Shown here: piece after piece, positions 2,824 through 37,212 of the stretch
How positions within the stretch are numbered: the stretch's first letter is position 1
How the letters are laid out: the number at the start of each line of letters is the position of its first letter
Source: Nanobdellota archaeon
Lineage (GTDB): Archaea > Nanobdellota > Nanobdellia > Pacearchaeales > GW2011-AR1
DNA: 39,703 nt
NCBI GenBank assembly: GCA_020053375.1
Contig: JAGVNG010000027.1
Location: 1-39,703, forward strand
Direction of reading: 5' to 3'
Made by a program: the position numbers and the translations under genes
Notes under the pieces: model-generated
Told to the model about the DNA's origin: nothing
The model's input: the letters and a program-made list of their open reading frames with translations, nothing else
Database searches by the model: none

Positions 2824-2859
2824 TATTTAAATCTTTCGTAAAAAGAACTTTTGACAGAA

Positions 2860-3010
2860 CGCCCCGACCGAGATTCGAACTCGGGTCACGGCCGTGCTCC
2901 AATGAGAGTTTTTATTTTCTCGTTTGAATCGGAACTAAAGTTCCTCAACAAACGCCTCCTTGCGGAGTCATTTGAGAGGGCCGCATTCTTGGCCTCTGAA
3001 CTATCGGGGC
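2860..3010 (-). tRNA. tRNA-Glu(CUC) with 78-nt intron (2895-2972) at position 37/38
   Basis: Acceptor GCCCCGA/TCGGGGC, T-arm CCGAG-TTCGAAT-CTCGG; exons match tRNA-Glu(UUC) at 36426-36498 except the anticodon. Spliced loop CTCTCAC. Confidence 0.9.
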
Positions 3011-31473: not shown

Positions 31474-32358
31474 TTATATATAACTTTTATGCTCATCTAA
31501 ATACCTTCTAAAAAACCATTGAACAAAGATATTATCTTCTTTTTTTGTTTGAGACCTTTCTAATGCATTGTAATAGCTGGTTCTTTTTGAATATTGAATG
31601 TCTAGTAAAGGGAATTTATGCCTTTTTAGGATAAAATTCATCATGAGTCTTGATATTCTTCCATTGCCATCTGCAAAGGGATGGATTGTAACAAATTTTA
31701 GATGAACTAAAGCTGCCAGTTCAACAGGATGCAAATTAAATTTATTTTGGTTATACCATTCAAAAAATTCTTTTAATAAGATATCTATTTCAATATGCAT
31801 TGGGGGCTTAAATTTAGATTGAGAAATAGCTACTTTATGATTTCTTATTTTTCCTGCAATATCGCTTTTTGTTTCATTCATTAATTCTTTGTGCCATTTT
31901 AGCACGATTTGCAAATTTAAGTCTTTTTCGTAATCTAACATTTCAAAAAATACTTTTTTATGGGCTTCAGCTTCCTTAACATCATTTAAGGGTCTTGAAT
32001 TTGGGGTTATTCCTCTTTCTAAAAGATTTGCTGTTTCTTTTAATGTTAAGGTTGAACCCTCTATTCTTTGAGTATTATATGTGAATTTAACAGCAAAATT
32101 TTCTTTGGATTTTTCTTTGGCGGTTTTTGGAAGATTTTTATATTCAACAGCAAAATTCTCTTTTATTTTATCAATATCTCCTATAAATTTCTCTTTATAG
32201 AATTCCTGCATAAATTTCTTCTTTTTTTCATCTAAATCTTTTGGAATTGCATCTCCTAAATAAGCCTGTTTCTTTTTAACAGATTTACCCTCCCGATGGC
32301 TATGAACAAGATAAAAATATTCCTTTTTTCCTCTCCTAATTTTTTTTAATTCTACCAT
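31474..32358 (-). CDS. Fic-domain protein (class II-like, N-terminal inhibitory motif)
   Basis: HPFADGNGRISR active-site motif; TQRIEG fits [S/T]xxxE[G/N]. Confidence 0.88.
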   Translation of the reverse strand: MVELKKIRRGKKEYFYLVHSHREGKSVKKKQAYLGDAIPKDLDEKKKKFMQEFYKEKFIGDIDKIKENFAVEYKNLPKTAKEKSKENFAVKFTYNTQRIEGSTLTLKETANLLERGITPNSRPLNDVKEAEAHKKVFFEMLDYEKDLNLQIVLKWHKELMNETKSDIAGKIRNHKVAISQSKFKPPMHIEIDILLKEFFEWYNQNKFNLHPVELAALVHLKFVTIHPFADGNGRISRLMMNFILKRHKFPLLDIQYSKRTSYYNALERSQTKKEDNIFVQWFFRRYLDEHKSYI

Positions 32359-32415: not shown

Positions 32416-32430
32416 ACGCCCCGACCGAGA
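32416..32430 (-). repeat. Duplicated tRNA-Glu 3'-end fragment (att-like)
   Basis: ACGCCCCGACCGAGA identical to 36425-36439, with further degenerate T-arm similarity. Confidence 0.7.
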
Positions 32431-32470
32431 ATCTAATTACAGAAAGGGGATTATTTAATATGGAGGAGAA

Positions 32471-32716
32471 TCATAAGAACATTCTAGAAATTAAGGGCGA
32501 ACTATCTTCTTTCTTAATCTTTATTAGGATTTCTTTTTCTCTTGGCACTTCTTCAAAATATAGCTCTAGAGCTTCCTTTAGCCTAGCCTTCGCCTGTTCT
32601 ATAGTATCTCCTTGAGTAACTATATTAGGAAATTGTATAGAACTTATGCTATAAATTCTATTATTGCCCTTGCCTTCAGGGGTTATAATAATGTCAATTT
32701 CCATTCTATTTTCCAT
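32471..32716 (-). CDS. hicB: HicB-family antitoxin
   Basis: SISSIQFPNIVTQGDTIEQAKARLKEALELYFEE. Confidence 0.82.
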   Translation of the reverse strand: MENRMEIDIIITPEGKGNNRIYSISSIQFPNIVTQGDTIEQAKARLKEALELYFEEVPREKEILIKIKKEDSSPLISRMFL

Positions 32717-32751: not shown

Positions 32752-32915
32752 TTAAAATATACCTTCAAATTCCTCCCTTTTTATCCCTGCTTCTTCACAT
32801 TCCTTAAGCAAATTTAATCTTACAGCATTGCTCGGTCTTTTCACATTAACTAAAACTATTGGTCTTTTCAAAGAAGGTAAGCTATCTATCCTGTTTATGA
32901 TTATATGGTCTCCTC
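32752..32915 (-). pseudogene. hicA: hicA toxin, 3' part (interrupted)
   Basis: Joins in frame to 36266-36353 when the 32916-36265 insertion and one TSD copy are removed; ends ...LLKECEEAGIKREEFEGIF*. Confidence 0.82.
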
Positions 32916-33005
32916 TACTCTGGTGCATTAATTGGTCTTAATGTCTTAATAACAAAATATAAAAATCTTGCAAGAATTAGCAGGCATAAGAAATGAAATT
33001 GCAAA

Positions 33006-33041
33006 TTCAGGCACCGAATAATTTAAATAGTTCAGGTACCT
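33006..33041 (+). promoter_or_regulatory. Operator-TATA-operator module of the 52-aa AbrB-like gene
   Basis: TTCAGGCACCGAA...TTTAAATA...TTCAGGTACCT; boxes 25 bp apart. Confidence 0.65.
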
Positions 33042-33050
33042 CTATCTTTT

Positions 33051-33209
33051 ATGAAAATAAGAAAAGTACTTGATAAAAGAGTTGGGAACACTGCTTACTT
33101 CAAATATCTTATAACTTTGCCAAAAGAGATTGTAGAAAATTCAGGACTTCTTGAAAAAGATTTAAAAGTAAAAAAAGAAGAACACAAAATTATAATTGAA
33201 AGAGATTAA
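33051..33209 (+). CDS. 52-aa AbrB/MazE-like DNA-binding protein
   Basis: MKIRKVLDKRVGNTAYFKYLITLPKEIVENSGLLEKDLKVKKEEHKIIIERD*; below ORF-track cutoff. Confidence 0.7.
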   Translation: MKIRKVLDKRVGNTAYFKYLITLPKEIVENSGLLEKDLKVKKEEHKIIIERD

Positions 33210-33210
33210 A

Positions 33211-34566
33211 TCAGTTAAAATGATATGTGCTCCCACGTCTTTCTCCATAATGTTTAGCTAATCCTTTTGATACTAATTCATTTAATATGCGAATTGCAGT
33301 GGGTCTGCTTATTTTGTGTACTTTCATAACATCTGAAGTTGAAAGAATTCCTCTTTCACGCCCATATAATAAAATAATATCTCCTAATGTTTCAGGTTTT
33401 CTTTCAGCAAATTTTAAATTGAGATGAAATATATTTGAAAGAATTGTTATCTCTGGCTGTTCTAATCCTCTACGCATCATTTCTCTTTTTATTATGGGTA
33501 TGCCCTGTCCAGCTGCTTCTGCTTTATGTACTGGACGCAAGAAATTATATATCCATTGATTACGATGAGTTGGAATTCCCTGATTTAATATTTTTTCTAA
33601 TTCTGCAGGGGTTGGTGCACCTGGATTTTGAAATTCAACCCTATCATCAAAAATCCTAATTAAAGATTCTTGTGGGTCACTATAATCTCTATGAACAATC
33701 ATATTAACCACAATTTCTCGGAGCACTATCTCTGGAATTATTGGTTCTTCAAATCTATCAGAACCCTGATAATATGTTCTCACAGGTAAATTAAGCTTTA
33801 AAAAATTAATACAACTATCAATTAATTTTCTTGCAGTTGTGCTTAAAAGAATGGCTGCAATTCTATCTATGGGTTTATCTCCTCTAAATCTTACAAGTTG
33901 AATTTTACATTGCGGTAAGAAGTATGATGGATTATCAACTAAAACAATAGTTCCTAAATTAGTTAATTGGTCTCCTTGTTCCATAATTGCTTTATTGCTT
34001 TTAAGAAAATTTTCTTCGGTTTGTGGATTTAAGGAATTACGTTCAGCTGCTTTTTTCATATAAAAAAGAAGCTCACTTCTATCTATGTCTGTTTTAGTTG
34101 CTGGACTTGGTCTCTGTTCCCACGTCAACATATTTCTACGAGTAAATATATCCCTAAAATTATTCTGAGTCATTTTCTTTGCTGAATCTTGAACCCTATG
34201 ATAACTAACATCTCTGTAAGAACAAATGTTCCCTCCTAAACCTGTTATTTTATATATGGCAATTTTTTTACCCTGACGTTCAATAAATTTTGGACTTGAG
34301 GTTGTAGGAATAGGGTCACAATTTCTCAATACACTTCCTACCTGTGTAATTACTGTTTGTTCATCATTTACCCCTATAACTTTAGGAGGACGTTCATCAT
34401 TAAGTCCAATTATTAACCAACCACCACCAGATGTCGCAAATGCAGCAATTTTCTCCCCTAAGACATCTAAATTTTTTGTTCCTAATGTCCAATCAACTTC
34501 ATAGCCTTCTGGCATCTGTCCCGCTAAAATTGAATCTACTATTTCTTCTGGCTTAAAATTTTCCAT
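33211..34566 (-). CDS. Schlafen/AlbA_2-type putative ATP-binding regulator with C-terminal wHTH
   Basis: EVDWTLGTKN...AAFATSGGGWLIIGLNDE; EIVLREIVVNMIVHRDYSDP; C-terminal winged helix. Confidence 0.8.
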   Translation of the reverse strand: MENFKPEEIVDSILAGQMPEGYEVDWTLGTKNLDVLGEKIAAFATSGGGWLIIGLNDERPPKVIGVNDEQTVITQVGSVLRNCDPIPTTSSPKFIERQGKKIAIYKITGLGGNICSYRDVSYHRVQDSAKKMTQNNFRDIFTRRNMLTWEQRPSPATKTDIDRSELLFYMKKAAERNSLNPQTEENFLKSNKAIMEQGDQLTNLGTIVLVDNPSYFLPQCKIQLVRFRGDKPIDRIAAILLSTTARKLIDSCINFLKLNLPVRTYYQGSDRFEEPIIPEIVLREIVVNMIVHRDYSDPQESLIRIFDDRVEFQNPGAPTPAELEKILNQGIPTHRNQWIYNFLRPVHKAEAAGQGIPIIKREMMRRGLEQPEITILSNIFHLNLKFAERKPETLGDIILLYGRERGILSTSDVMKVHKISRPTAIRILNELVSKGLAKHYGERRGSTYHFN

Positions 34567-34642
34567 AATATAAATGTAAAGATATATCTTTATATATTTT
34601 ACTATTTTACATTTTTTGAATTATAGATAAAAAAGACAATAA

Positions 34643-34680
34643 TTCAGGTACCGAAACATATATAAACATCAGGTACCTGA
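34643..34680 (+). promoter_or_regulatory. Operator-TATA-operator module of the transposase
   Basis: TTCAGGTACCGAA...TATATAAA...TCAGGTACCTGA; boxes 25 bp apart. Confidence 0.65.
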
Positions 34681-34687
34681 ATGTCTT

Positions 34688-35581
34688 ATGGAAACGAGAC
34701 GTTCAAAGTGCCAAAGCGATAATATAGTAAAACGAGGCACTTTTACAACACAAGCATATGGAAAACAACAAAGATACTATTGCAAAAACTGCAATAAGAA
34801 ATTCATAGAGCATACTGGCTTTTACAGAATGAGAAACACCCCACAAAAAATTACTTTATCTCTTGACCTATTCTTTCGTGGTTTAAGCACTCGTGAAGTC
34901 CAGAGCCATCTACAAGCATTTTATCCTCATAATTCAGACCACAGCACAATATTAAGGTGGATTAGAAAATACTCTCTGCAAATTGCTAAATATACAGATA
35001 AGTTAAAAGTCAATACTGGCTCTTACATAGAAGTTGATGAGATGGAATATCATAGAAGAAAAAGCCATAAAGCAAAATTAGGTATAGATGAGAATTGGTT
35101 TATTGATGCAATAGATGTTAAAACCAGATTTATGCTTTCTTCTGCTTATACAAAAGAAAGAACTGGAAAAGAAGTTAATTCTGTTCTTGAAAAAATCAAA
35201 AAGAAATCTGACAATATTAAGATAGTCACCACAGATGGTTTTACAGGATACATAAAACCAATAAAAAGAGTTTGGGGTTACAATAAGCATACAAGAAATC
35301 ATAATGTCAAGCATAATATTGTAAATGCTTCAAGAGGTGAAGGCTTTAATATTTGGGTTGAAAGAATGCACAATAGTATAAGACAAAGAACACAGAATTT
35401 TAGAGGTTTTCACGGCTCTATTAATTCTGCATACTCAATAATGAAAGGCATAGAAATCTTTTACAATTTCGTAAGAAAACACGAAGCCCTTAAAGGCAAA
35501 ACTCCATCTGATGTTGCTATTTCATCTTTGAAATTTGAAAGCCCTAATAGATGGCTTGAATTGATTAAGATGTCAAATTAA
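34688..35581 (+). CDS. DDE transposase with N-terminal zinc ribbon (IS6/IS240-like)
   Basis: CQSDNIVKRG...YYCKNCNKKF; DEMEYH, TTDGFTGY, VERMHNSIRQRTQNFRGF...NFVRKHEALKGKTPSDVA. Confidence 0.82.
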   Translation: METRRSKCQSDNIVKRGTFTTQAYGKQQRYYCKNCNKKFIEHTGFYRMRNTPQKITLSLDLFFRGLSTREVQSHLQAFYPHNSDHSTILRWIRKYSLQIAKYTDKLKVNTGSYIEVDEMEYHRRKSHKAKLGIDENWFIDAIDVKTRFMLSSAYTKERTGKEVNSVLEKIKKKSDNIKIVTTDGFTGYIKPIKRVWGYNKHTRNHNVKHNIVNASRGEGFNIWVERMHNSIRQRTQNFRGFHGSINSAYSIMKGIEIFYNFVRKHEALKGKTPSDVAISSLKFESPNRWLELIKMSN

Positions 35582-35931
35582 ATTTTTTGTATATATTTAG
35601 AAATCTCGTTCACATCTCTTTTAACTCTTTCAACACCTATTTCAGAGTCAGCTCCAATAAAAAATCTAATCTCACTATGAACATATACACTTGTGGCTAA
35701 TTTTGTTGTTCCTGCTTTATGTTTTCCAGAATCTCTTATCTCTCTTGCTTTACTGCCTGAATAAATTTTAGCGTCTGCTCTTATCCAAATCGTATCAAAC
35801 ATTTCTTTTGGTTTGGATAAAACAAATAAGACAATTGTAACTATCCAAGATATGACAGCAAGAGTTATAATAGTTGAAGAACCTTGAAAGGCAATAATTG
35901 TAAGTAAAACAGAAACTCCTAAACATATCAA
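35578..35931 (-). CDS. Membrane protein, transposon cargo
   Basis: Two N-terminal TM segments; starts in the 4-nt overlap with the preceding ORF. Confidence 0.6.
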   Translation of the reverse strand: MICLGVSVLLTIIAFQGSSTIITLAVISWIVTIVLFVLSKPKEMFDTIWIRADAKIYSGSKAREIRDSGKHKAGTTKLATSVYVHSEIRFFIGADSEIGVERVKRDVNEISKYIQKI

Positions 35932-36203
35932 GCATATTTTCTTAATTCTTTAGCATTTTTACGCGATTGTTCTTCTGACCTTTTAGCTTCCATTTTTGCT
36001 ACAAAGTCTGAAACTCCATCTGCTACATTATCTTTTGTAACTTCTGGATTTGGATATGAAACCTTATATCCTAAATCCTCTAATTTTGTAGAAAGGTTTT
36101 CAATAGTAATTTGTGGATGCCCAGATTCCAAAGGCACTTGTGTATAAACAGGTTTTCTCTTCAAATCTTCTTTTGAAGGAAAATCATCATCTTCATCACT
36201 CAT
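35928..36203 (-). CDS. Acidic hypothetical protein, transposon cargo
   Basis: 91-aa ORF overlapping the start of 35578-35931. Confidence 0.6.
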   Translation of the reverse strand: MSDEDDDFPSKEDLKRKPVYTQVPLESGHPQITIENLSTKLEDLGYKVSYPNPEVTKDNVADGVSDFVAKMEAKRSEEQSRKNAKELRKYA

Positions 36204-36265
36204 TCTTTTTTAAAGAATCTTATACTTAAAAATTTAACTAAAAGACCAATTAATGCACCAGAGTA

Positions 36266-36353
36266 GGTCTCCTCTGATTCTTTTGATTTCCAAGTTATGT
36301 TTCTTTAATATGGAAATTATACTACTTACTATCGGAGTCAATCTGTAGCCCAT
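36266..36353 (-). pseudogene. hicA: hicA toxin, 5' part (interrupted)
   Basis: ATG at 36353: MGYRLTPIVSSIISILKKHNLEIKRI|RGDH...; continues in frame at 32915 after excision. Confidence 0.8.
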
Positions 36354-36425
36354 TAATAGTTGCAAGAATTAAGCAATTTTATACTTTTCTACCAACGCCC
36401 ACTTAAACTCTACAAAGTTTAGGGA

Positions 36426-36498
36426 CGCCCCGACCGAGATTCGAACTCGGGTCACGGCCGTGAAAGGGCCGCATTCTTGGCCTCTGAACTATCGGGGC
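36426..36498 (-). tRNA. tRNA-Glu(UUC), intronless
   Basis: GCCCCGATAGTTCAGAGGCCAAGAATGCGGCC-CTTTCAC-GGCCG...TCGGGGC. Confidence 0.93.
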
Positions 36499-36655: not shown

Positions 36656-36985
36656 CTACTGCAATGCTAATCTTATTTTTTGATTAATATCGTCCTTTAT
36701 TTTTGAACTATTTATTTCTCCTATTTTTCCATAAATAAGACTTTTATGCAATGTGAATATCATGTCAACATAAATAAAAGAATCGAAACGGATATCTCCA
36801 CTACATGCATTTTTTGGCAAAAATATTCCATATTTTTGGAAATCTCTTTGTTTTGTGGTAATTTGACAAACAATTGAATTTTCGCCTTCTAGTGGATTAA
36901 TAATTAGTGCAGGTCTTTTCTTAGCATTTTTTAAATTAGTGAACGGGAAAACAGTAAGGACTATATCGAACTTTTTTAATATCAT
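36656..36985 (-). CDS. mazF: MazF/PemK-family toxin
   Basis: KFDIVLTVFPFTNLKNAKKRPALIINP. Confidence 0.83.
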   Translation of the reverse strand: MILKKFDIVLTVFPFTNLKNAKKRPALIINPLEGENSIVCQITTKQRDFQKYGIFLPKNACSGDIRFDSFIYVDMIFTLHKSLIYGKIGEINSSKIKDDINQKIRLALQ

Positions 36986-37212
36986 TGCAAATAGGCAAAC
37001 GCTTTTTCATCTTCTTTGGATAACCATGATTCAGCCAGCAATTTTTCATCTGCAAGGAATTTTGTTTCTTCCCAATCACTCATGCTTATTTTTTCCATTT
37101 CTTCAACTCTTTGCTTTATTACTTTTCTTACAAATTCACTCCACTTTATTTCTGAGAATTTTTTCATTTTTTTATAGACATCATCATCTATTGAAAGGGT
37201 TATGTTTGTCAT
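36982..37212 (-). CDS. RHH-like antitoxin
   Basis: TLSIDDDVYKKMKKFSEIKWSEFVRKVIKQRVEE; 4-nt overlap with the toxin. Confidence 0.78.
   Translation of the reverse strand: MTNITLSIDDDVYKKMKKFSEIKWSEFVRKVIKQRVEEMEKISMSDWEETKFLADEKLLAESWLSKEDEKAFAYLQ

What the first reader, a model, noticed from the sequence alone, without database searches (positions are those of the whole stretch)
32752..36353. hicA split by a 3.35-kb transposon; excision restores an intact ORF
Seen: joining 36353-36266 to 32915-32752 on the minus strand (one TSD copy removed) gives 243 nt: MGYRLTPIVSSIISILKKHNLEIKRIRGDHIIINRIDSLPSLKRPIVLVNVKRPSNAVRLNLLKECEEAGIKREEFEGIF*, HicA-like and directly upstream of hicB. No frameshift or stop, so the insertion looks recent or the element is still able to excise. 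An ORF caller would miss both halves.
Basis: partly seen in the sequence, partly recalled or inferred. Interest (0 to 1): 0.8.

Follow-up and report, generated by a model that had tools for sequence, protein, structure and literature searches.

The report
Cargo transposon inserted into archaeal hicA
In a tiny-genome archaeon a 3.35-kb jumping element has landed in the toxin gene of a toxin-antitoxin pair; the element belongs to a large, apparently undescribed family of archaeal transposons that carry passenger genes, often DNA restriction-modification systems, and seem to keep their own transposase switched off with a small self-made repressor.

Summary
Window 32916-36265 (3350 bp) is a transposon with perfect 24-bp terminal inverted repeats and 9-bp target duplications (GGTCTCCTC). 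It lies inside hicA: the two halves, searched separately, match one uninterrupted orthologue upstream of hicB in a related genome (76% and 83% identity). No other hicA of this kind exists in the genome. "Still able to excise" is unsupported: any recent insertion with a clean target duplication has this property.

The more interesting part is the element. Its transposase (zinc ribbon plus DDE core; below every NCBIfam IS cut-off) defines a family in DPANN archaea. I delimited 46 elements (2.0-7.8 kb) with 24-bp repeats and 9-bp duplications. Nearly all carry passenger genes; at least 19 carry a DNA methyltransferase. A 2019 survey stated that passenger-gene transposons had not been detected in archaea. 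In the 11 elements encoding an AbrB-like protein, including this one, the transposase promoter has an operator on each side of the TATA box, and the operator variant is shared with the abrB promoter in nearly all. This suggests an autoregulated repressor (inferred, untested). The hicA insertion itself is ordinary; the family is a new variant of a known kind.

The parts
36266..36353 (-). 5' half of hicA (codons 1-29, plus the TSD copy)
   Evidence: 76% identity to residues 1-29 of the intact orthologue in L035
32752..32915 (-). 3' half of hicA, including the conserved G-D-H motif and stop codon (plus the TSD copy); readable as a 58-aa ORF (32752-32928) from an ATG in the terminal repeat
   Evidence: 83% identity to residues 27-79 of the L035 orthologue
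32471..32716 (-). hicB, antitoxin-like, intact, downstream of hicA
   Evidence: weak Pfam HicB_lk_antitox (20.9 bits, cut-off 27); 73% identity to the hicB next to intact hicA in L035
32907..32915 (.). target-site duplication, left copy (GGTCTCCTC)
   Evidence: exact 9-bp match with 36266-36274
36266..36274 (.). target-site duplication, right copy
32916..32939 (+). left terminal inverted repeat, 24 bp
   Evidence: 24/24 match with the right repeat; fits the family consensus
36242..36265 (-). right terminal inverted repeat, 24 bp
32916..36265 (.). whole transposon, 3350 bp; only copy in the assembly
33051..33209 (+). AbrB/MazE-like protein of 52 aa, proposed autoregulated repressor
   Evidence: weak Pfam MazE_antitoxin (E 0.078 here, 0.002 and 0.004 in homologues); 11 elements encode a homologue
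33006..33043 (+). abrB promoter: operator (33006), TATA-like ATTTAAATA, operator (33031)
34643..34681 (+). transposase promoter: operator (34643), TATA-like ATATATAAA, operator (34668)
33211..34566 (-). SLFN_AlbA_2 / HATPase_c_4 / winged-helix protein, 451 aa, divergent from the transposase; cargo or regulator
   Evidence: Pfam above cut-off for both domains; same arrangement in the L080 element
34688..35581 (+). transposase, 297 aa: zinc ribbon (C8, C32, C35 invariant) and DDE core (D117, D183, E225)
35578..36203 (-). cargo gene read as two ORFs (91 and 117 aa); one 210-223-aa ORF in relatives, so probably frameshifted near 35930
   Evidence: L106 and L105 homologues are single ORFs

Best explanation
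A unit transposon of an archaeal (DPANN) family inserted once into hicA by DDE-transposase chemistry, duplicating 9 bp of target and cutting the toxin gene just before the conserved histidine codon. This most likely inactivates HicA and leaves an antitoxin-only locus (shown: structure and disruption; inferred: loss of toxicity). The family works as a cargo carrier: two 24-bp ends, one transposase, a small DNA-binding regulator in many members, and exchangeable passenger genes, most often restriction-modification genes. In this element and ten others the regulator is an AbrB-like protein. It most likely binds paired operators that flank the TATA boxes of the transposase promoter and of its own promoter, keeping transposition low in an established host and allowing a burst when the element enters a cell without repressor (inferred from operator position and co-variation; no binding was tested).
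For: Ends and duplications. Intact orthologue and no second copy. Family: 89 distinct transposase copies examined, 46 with TIR at least 17/24 and an exact 9-bp TSD (one further hit judged false); the same cut gave 9 copies with an 8-bp and 2 with a 10-bp duplication (the 7-bp hits arise from sliding inside a 9-bp duplication). Transposase found in 80 of 181 genomes of the taxonomic family and 80 of 371 sampled in the phylum; of 80 loci from genome contigs nearly every title names a DPANN archaeon. Cargo: at least 19 of 46 with a DNA methyltransferase (Pfam), restriction enzymes of MjaI, Bsp6I and HNH types. Regulation: operator-TATA-operator pairs in 8 of 10 AbrB elements by an automatic pattern, 1 of 36 others; the one exception encodes a missed AbrB 90% identical to the window's with the same operator; the two pattern misses show variant operators in the printed promoters. 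Within-element match of abrB and transposase promoters exceeds permuted pairing (26 of 200000 permutations reach it; 1 of 100000 with hand-read cores). DDE core fold: (Z 15-17 to retroviral and IstA cores).
Against: No transposition, excision, binding or toxicity was tested. The window's element is single-copy and its 210-aa cargo gene seems frameshifted. The L149 abrB promoter shows no clear operator. Related elements are not independent, so permutation numbers overstate the evidence. Most source genomes are metagenome assemblies.
Confidence: 0.78

Rival explanations
1. Reversible switch: the element excises precisely at useful frequency, so hicA is turned off and on.
For: Clean 9-bp duplication and undamaged halves leave the gene restorable in principle.
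Against: True of any fresh insertion. No empty site of the same species, no circular form, no read data. Precise excision of DDE elements is usually rare and depends on host slippage rather than transposase (general knowledge).
Confidence: 0.06
2. The insertion is an assembly chimera in a metagenome bin and does not exist in any cell.
For: The window is a whole contig of a draft assembly (33 contigs, 91% complete).
Against: Perfect TIRs and an exact 9-bp duplication with the same geometry as 45 other elements are not produced by misassembly; no second copy exists in the assembly to recombine with.
Confidence: 0.03
3. The element is an ordinary archaeal IS6-family insertion sequence with a few hitch-hiking ORFs.
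For: IS6 is the best NCBIfam match and all 30 aligned transposases match it; zinc-finger IS6 transposases exist in Clostridia (PMC7986276).
Against: 79 bits against a cut-off of 125; 9-bp instead of 8-bp duplications in 46 elements; no GG tips; 24-bp repeats; passenger genes in nearly all members, whereas a single IS6 member with a passenger gene is noted (PMC7986276); the archaeal IS6 signature E--F---K-R (PMC6807381) is not seen, E-R-HN--R-R stands there instead.
Confidence: 0.15
4. The shared promoter motif is only a promoter element (BRE plus TATA plus start region), or is bound by the AlbA_2 protein or a host factor, not by the AbrB-like protein.
For: CCGAAA overlaps the expected BRE position; the AlbA_2 protein has a winged helix.
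Against: The motif pair is absent from 35 family members without AbrB, and its variant follows the AbrB subtype; most AbrB elements lack an AlbA_2 protein.
Confidence: 0.2

Closest known systems
IS6/IS26 family insertion sequences
   Same: Best NCBIfam profile match; DDE transposase; short inverted ends; a minority with N-terminal zinc finger (PMC7986276)
   Different: Score below cut-off; 9-bp rather than 8-bp duplications; 24-bp ends without GG tips; 2-8 kb with passenger genes instead of about 0.8 kb
Transporter IS (tIS) and unit transposons with passenger genes in bacteria
   Same: Single transposase plus unrelated passenger genes between the ends
   Different: Found here in DPANN archaea, while a 2019 survey said composite transposons with passenger genes had not been detected in archaea (PMC6563490); passengers are often restriction-modification genes
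Tn3-family transposons with toxin-antitoxin genes or repressing resolvase (PMC7157771)
   Same: An element-encoded DNA-binding protein, in one case AbrB-like, lies beside the transposase; TnpR represses transposase and itself
   Different: No resolvase or toxin partner recognised here; operators flank an archaeal TATA box; unrelated transposase
IS256 (ISCth4) and retroviral-integrase-like DDE enzymes
   Same: Predicted catalytic core fold
   Different: Low sequence identity (11-16%); no family-level match
hicAB toxin-antitoxin loci
   Same: Gene order toxin-antitoxin, HicA Pfam match in orthologues, conserved histidine
   Different: The window copy is interrupted; function not tested

Membership tests
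HicA (PF07927) | Profile match of the protein family above cut-off | tested here: met
   Met by orthologue L037 (29.6 vs 27 bits); 3 of 6 orthologues match at E 0.01; window halves alone do not match, as expected for short pieces
HicA (PF07927) | Conserved histidine in the G-x-H motif | tested here: met
   G28-D29-H30 invariant in six orthologues and present in the window's 3' half
HicAB module | Adjacent HicB-like antitoxin | tested here: inconclusive
   HicB_lk_antitox match below cut-off (20.9 vs 27), but the pair is conserved in related loci
HicAB module | Toxicity (mRNA cleavage) and neutralisation | not testable with these tools
   needs experiment
IS6 family | NCBIfam transpos_IS6 score above 125 bits | tested here: not met
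   79.4 bits
IS6 family | 8-bp target duplication (PMC7986276) | tested here: not met
   exact 9-bp duplications in 46 elements
IS6 family | Terminal repeats of 15-20 bp with GG tips (PMC7986276) | tested here: not met
   consensus TGCATTGTTACGTTAACGGGTGTT, 24 bp
IS1, IS256, IS481, ISL3 families | NCBIfam score above the curated cut-off | tested here: not met
   50.6/100, 39.2/150, 44.3/224, 32.3/180 bits
DDE transposases (RNase H fold) | Invariant D, D, E and integrase-like core | tested here: met
   D117, D183, E225 invariant in 30 sequences; model pLDDT 84, Z 15-17 to integrase cores
Cargo (unit) transposon | Passenger genes inside one pair of ends with target duplication, repeated in independent insertions | tested here: met
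   46 elements
Cargo (unit) transposon | Demonstrated transposition | not testable with these tools
   needs experiment or population data
AbrB-family repressor | Pfam MazE_antitoxin/AbrB match above cut-off | tested here: inconclusive
   13.4-18.5 bits against 24.7 in three homologues
AbrB-family repressor | Binding to the operators | not testable with these tools
   only co-occurrence and co-variation shown

The most novel reading that the evidence does not exclude
An undescribed family of archaeal cargo transposons is a main vehicle spreading restriction-modification systems among DPANN archaea, with element-specific AbrB repressor/operator pairs that silence transposition in an established host and release it on entry into a new cell.
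Probability: 0.4. Interest if true: 0.68.

Novelty: new variant of a known kind. Interest (0 to 1): 0.5.

Why it matters
DPANN archaea have very small genomes and often live on other archaea; how they gain defence genes is poorly known. A transposon family that carries restriction-modification modules between fixed ends gives a direct route, and the literature searched states that passenger-gene transposons had not been seen in archaea. The repressor/operator pairs, which change together from element to element, make transposition control in archaea testable with short DNA and a 52-aa protein.

Tried and rejected
A first TIR search without a duplication requirement gave mixed hits; the 9-bp requirement resolved it, and hits in L116 and L128 and the short L123 copy were set aside. 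L036 was dropped from the HicA alignment because its reading frame is broken. A PDB sequence search with the HicA profile found nothing. Plasmid records hold no relative of the transposase. PADLOC gave only weak, partial matches for the AlbA_2 protein, so I do not call it a defence gene. The idea that hicAB sits at a conserved tRNA integration site was not supported: no tRNA lies near hicAB in ten related loci. Structure matches say only that the core is integrase-like; families missing from that list are not excluded.

Full report
Observation. The window holds two perfect inverted repeats, 32915-32939 and 36242-36266. Requiring an exact duplication beside 24-bp ends places the element at 32916-36265 (3350 bp) with the 9-bp duplication GGTCTCCTC at 32907-32915 and 36266-36274. 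The insertion lies inside a minus-strand gene. I kept the two halves apart. The 5' piece (29 codons) is 76% and the 3' piece 83% identical to one uninterrupted 80-aa ORF in L035/L107, a genome of another genus of the same family, and the two pieces meet there at the RGD codons. In that relative the ORF lies directly upstream of a hicB-like gene 73% identical to the window's. Further related loci show hicA-like sequence next to hicB. The intact orthologue used as query against the window's own genome finds only the two pieces. HicA identity rests on the orthologues: three of six match Pfam HicA, one above the cut-off, and G28-D29-H30 is invariant.

Consequence for hicA. The insertion falls right before the conserved histidine codon, so the N-terminal helix and first strand are separated from the rest (inferred from the HicA fold in general). 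A 58-aa ORF (32752-32928) begins at an ATG inside the terminal repeat and runs in frame through the 3' half, roughly 30 nt downstream of a TATA-like stretch in the element end; it could keep hicB transcribed, but nothing shows that it does. Amino-acid changes in the halves against L035 (7 of 29 and 9 of 54 codons) are not more frequent than in hicB (22 of 82), in keeping with a recent insertion. Nothing shows excision: a restorable reading frame is what every clean insertion with a target duplication gives.

The element. Genes: a 52-aa AbrB/MazE-like protein (33051-33209, +), a 451-aa SLFN_AlbA_2/HATPase_c_4/winged-helix protein (33211-34566, -), the transposase (34688-35581, +), and a cargo gene read as 91- and 117-aa ORFs (35578-36203, -). 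In L105 and L106 the last two are one ORF of 210-223 aa, so the window copy looks frameshifted, or mis-sequenced, near 35930. There is one copy of the element in the genome.

The transposase. It has an N-terminal zinc ribbon and an invariant D117, D183, E225. NCBIfam matches IS6, IS1, IS481, IS256 and ISL3, all far below their cut-offs. The AlphaFold2 model (pLDDT 84) has a retroviral-integrase-like core (Z 15-17 over about 150 residues); Foldseek ranks ISCth4 first, an IS256-family element by my own knowledge. So it is a DDE transposase not assigned to a curated family by these tools.

The family. The transposase occurs in 80 of 181 genomes of the taxonomic family, 81 of 200 in the order and 80 of 371 sampled in the phylum. 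A scan of one genome per species across bacteria and archaea returned 80 loci; nearly all titles name DPANN archaea (Pacearchaeota, Woesearchaeota, Nanoarchaeota, an Aenigmatarchaeote, a Parvarchaeote). Of 89 distinct copies, 46 have 24-bp ends matching at 17 or more positions plus an exact 9-bp duplication; at the same cut an 8-bp duplication fits 9 and a 10-bp one 2. Apparent 7-bp fits come from sliding inside a 9-bp duplication. Consensus end: TGCATTGTTACGTTAACGGGTGTT. Sizes are 1993-7820 bp, median about 3.7 kb.

Cargo. At least 19 of 46 elements carry a DNA methyltransferase: N4/N6 type, D12 type, C5 type, a type I M-S fusion and an Eco57I-like enzyme. Among the other cargo proteins are MjaI- and Bsp6I-type restriction enzymes and HNH nucleases. 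L075 carries what looks like a branched-chain amino-acid ABC transporter set. L080 resembles the window's element: an AbrB-like and an AlbA_2 protein arranged around the transposase. A 2019 survey states that composite transposons with passenger genes had not been detected in archaea (PMC6563490). My literature searches found no description of this family; the library holds open-licence papers only.

Control. In the window, CAGG[TC]ACC occurs at four places only (33008, 33033, 34645, 34670), one on each side of the TATA-like boxes of the abrB and transposase promoters. Eleven elements encode an AbrB-like protein. An automatic pattern for an operator pair around a TATA box in the transposase promoter hits 8 of the 10 first recognised and 1 of 36 others. 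That one, L088, proved to encode an unlisted AbrB 90% identical to the window's, with the same operator. The two misses, L091 and L127, show variant or displaced pairs in the printed sequence. The core varies: CAGGTACC (window, L088), CGGGCACC/CGGGTGCC (L080, L141, L149), CATGTACC (L101, L147), CGGTTACC (L091), TAGGTACC (L127, L144, L182). It agrees between the abrB and transposase promoters of an element, except that L149's abrB promoter shows no operator, and elements with like AbrB N-termini share a core. An automatic comparison gives a within-element excess reached by 26 of 200000 permutations. Relatedness among elements weakens these figures. The simplest account is an autoregulated repressor blocking the TATA box.

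Verdict. The hicA disruption is real and by itself ordinary. The family to which the insert belongs is a new variant of a known kind (unit transposon with passengers) in a group of organisms where it appears undescribed, and its proposed repressor circuit can be tested directly.

Noticed in passing
window 2859-3010: A second tRNA-Glu gene on the minus strand, apparently interrupted by an intron of roughly 80 nt near the anticodon and therefore missed by ARAGORN.
   Followed up: partly
window 32416-32436 and 36425-36445: A 21-bp copy (two differences) of the 3' end of tRNA-Glu lies about 4 kb downstream of the tRNA-Glu gene (36426-36498); the two bracket hicAB and the transposon, like an old attachment-site duplication.
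   Followed up: partly
window 36656-37212: PemK/MazF-like toxin (Pfam above cut-off) with a small upstream ORF that may be its antitoxin, next to hicAB.
   Followed up: no
window 31474-32358: Fic-domain protein beside hicAB (Pfam 78.8 bits).
   Followed up: no
L106:7247-7941: Intact 210-aa homologue of the window's frameshifted cargo gene, between genes that look like elongation factor 2 and EF-1A, with a single family-type terminal repeat 62 nt from its start, the same distance as in the window; perhaps a retained cargo gene of a decayed element.
   Followed up: partly
L123:5823-10145: Two family elements side by side with three copies of the same 9-bp duplication TTGTTGTAG, the first apparently decayed: a second insertion at the first one's duplication.
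   Followed up: no
L153 (= L084) and L179 (= L099): Elements with near-identical 313-aa left-hand cargo but different methyltransferases, suggesting cargo exchange inside a shared frame.
   Followed up: no
G000:C8:65681-66496 (L108): A distant second transposase of the superfamily (32% identity) in the same genome, without recognisable 24-bp ends.
   Followed up: partly
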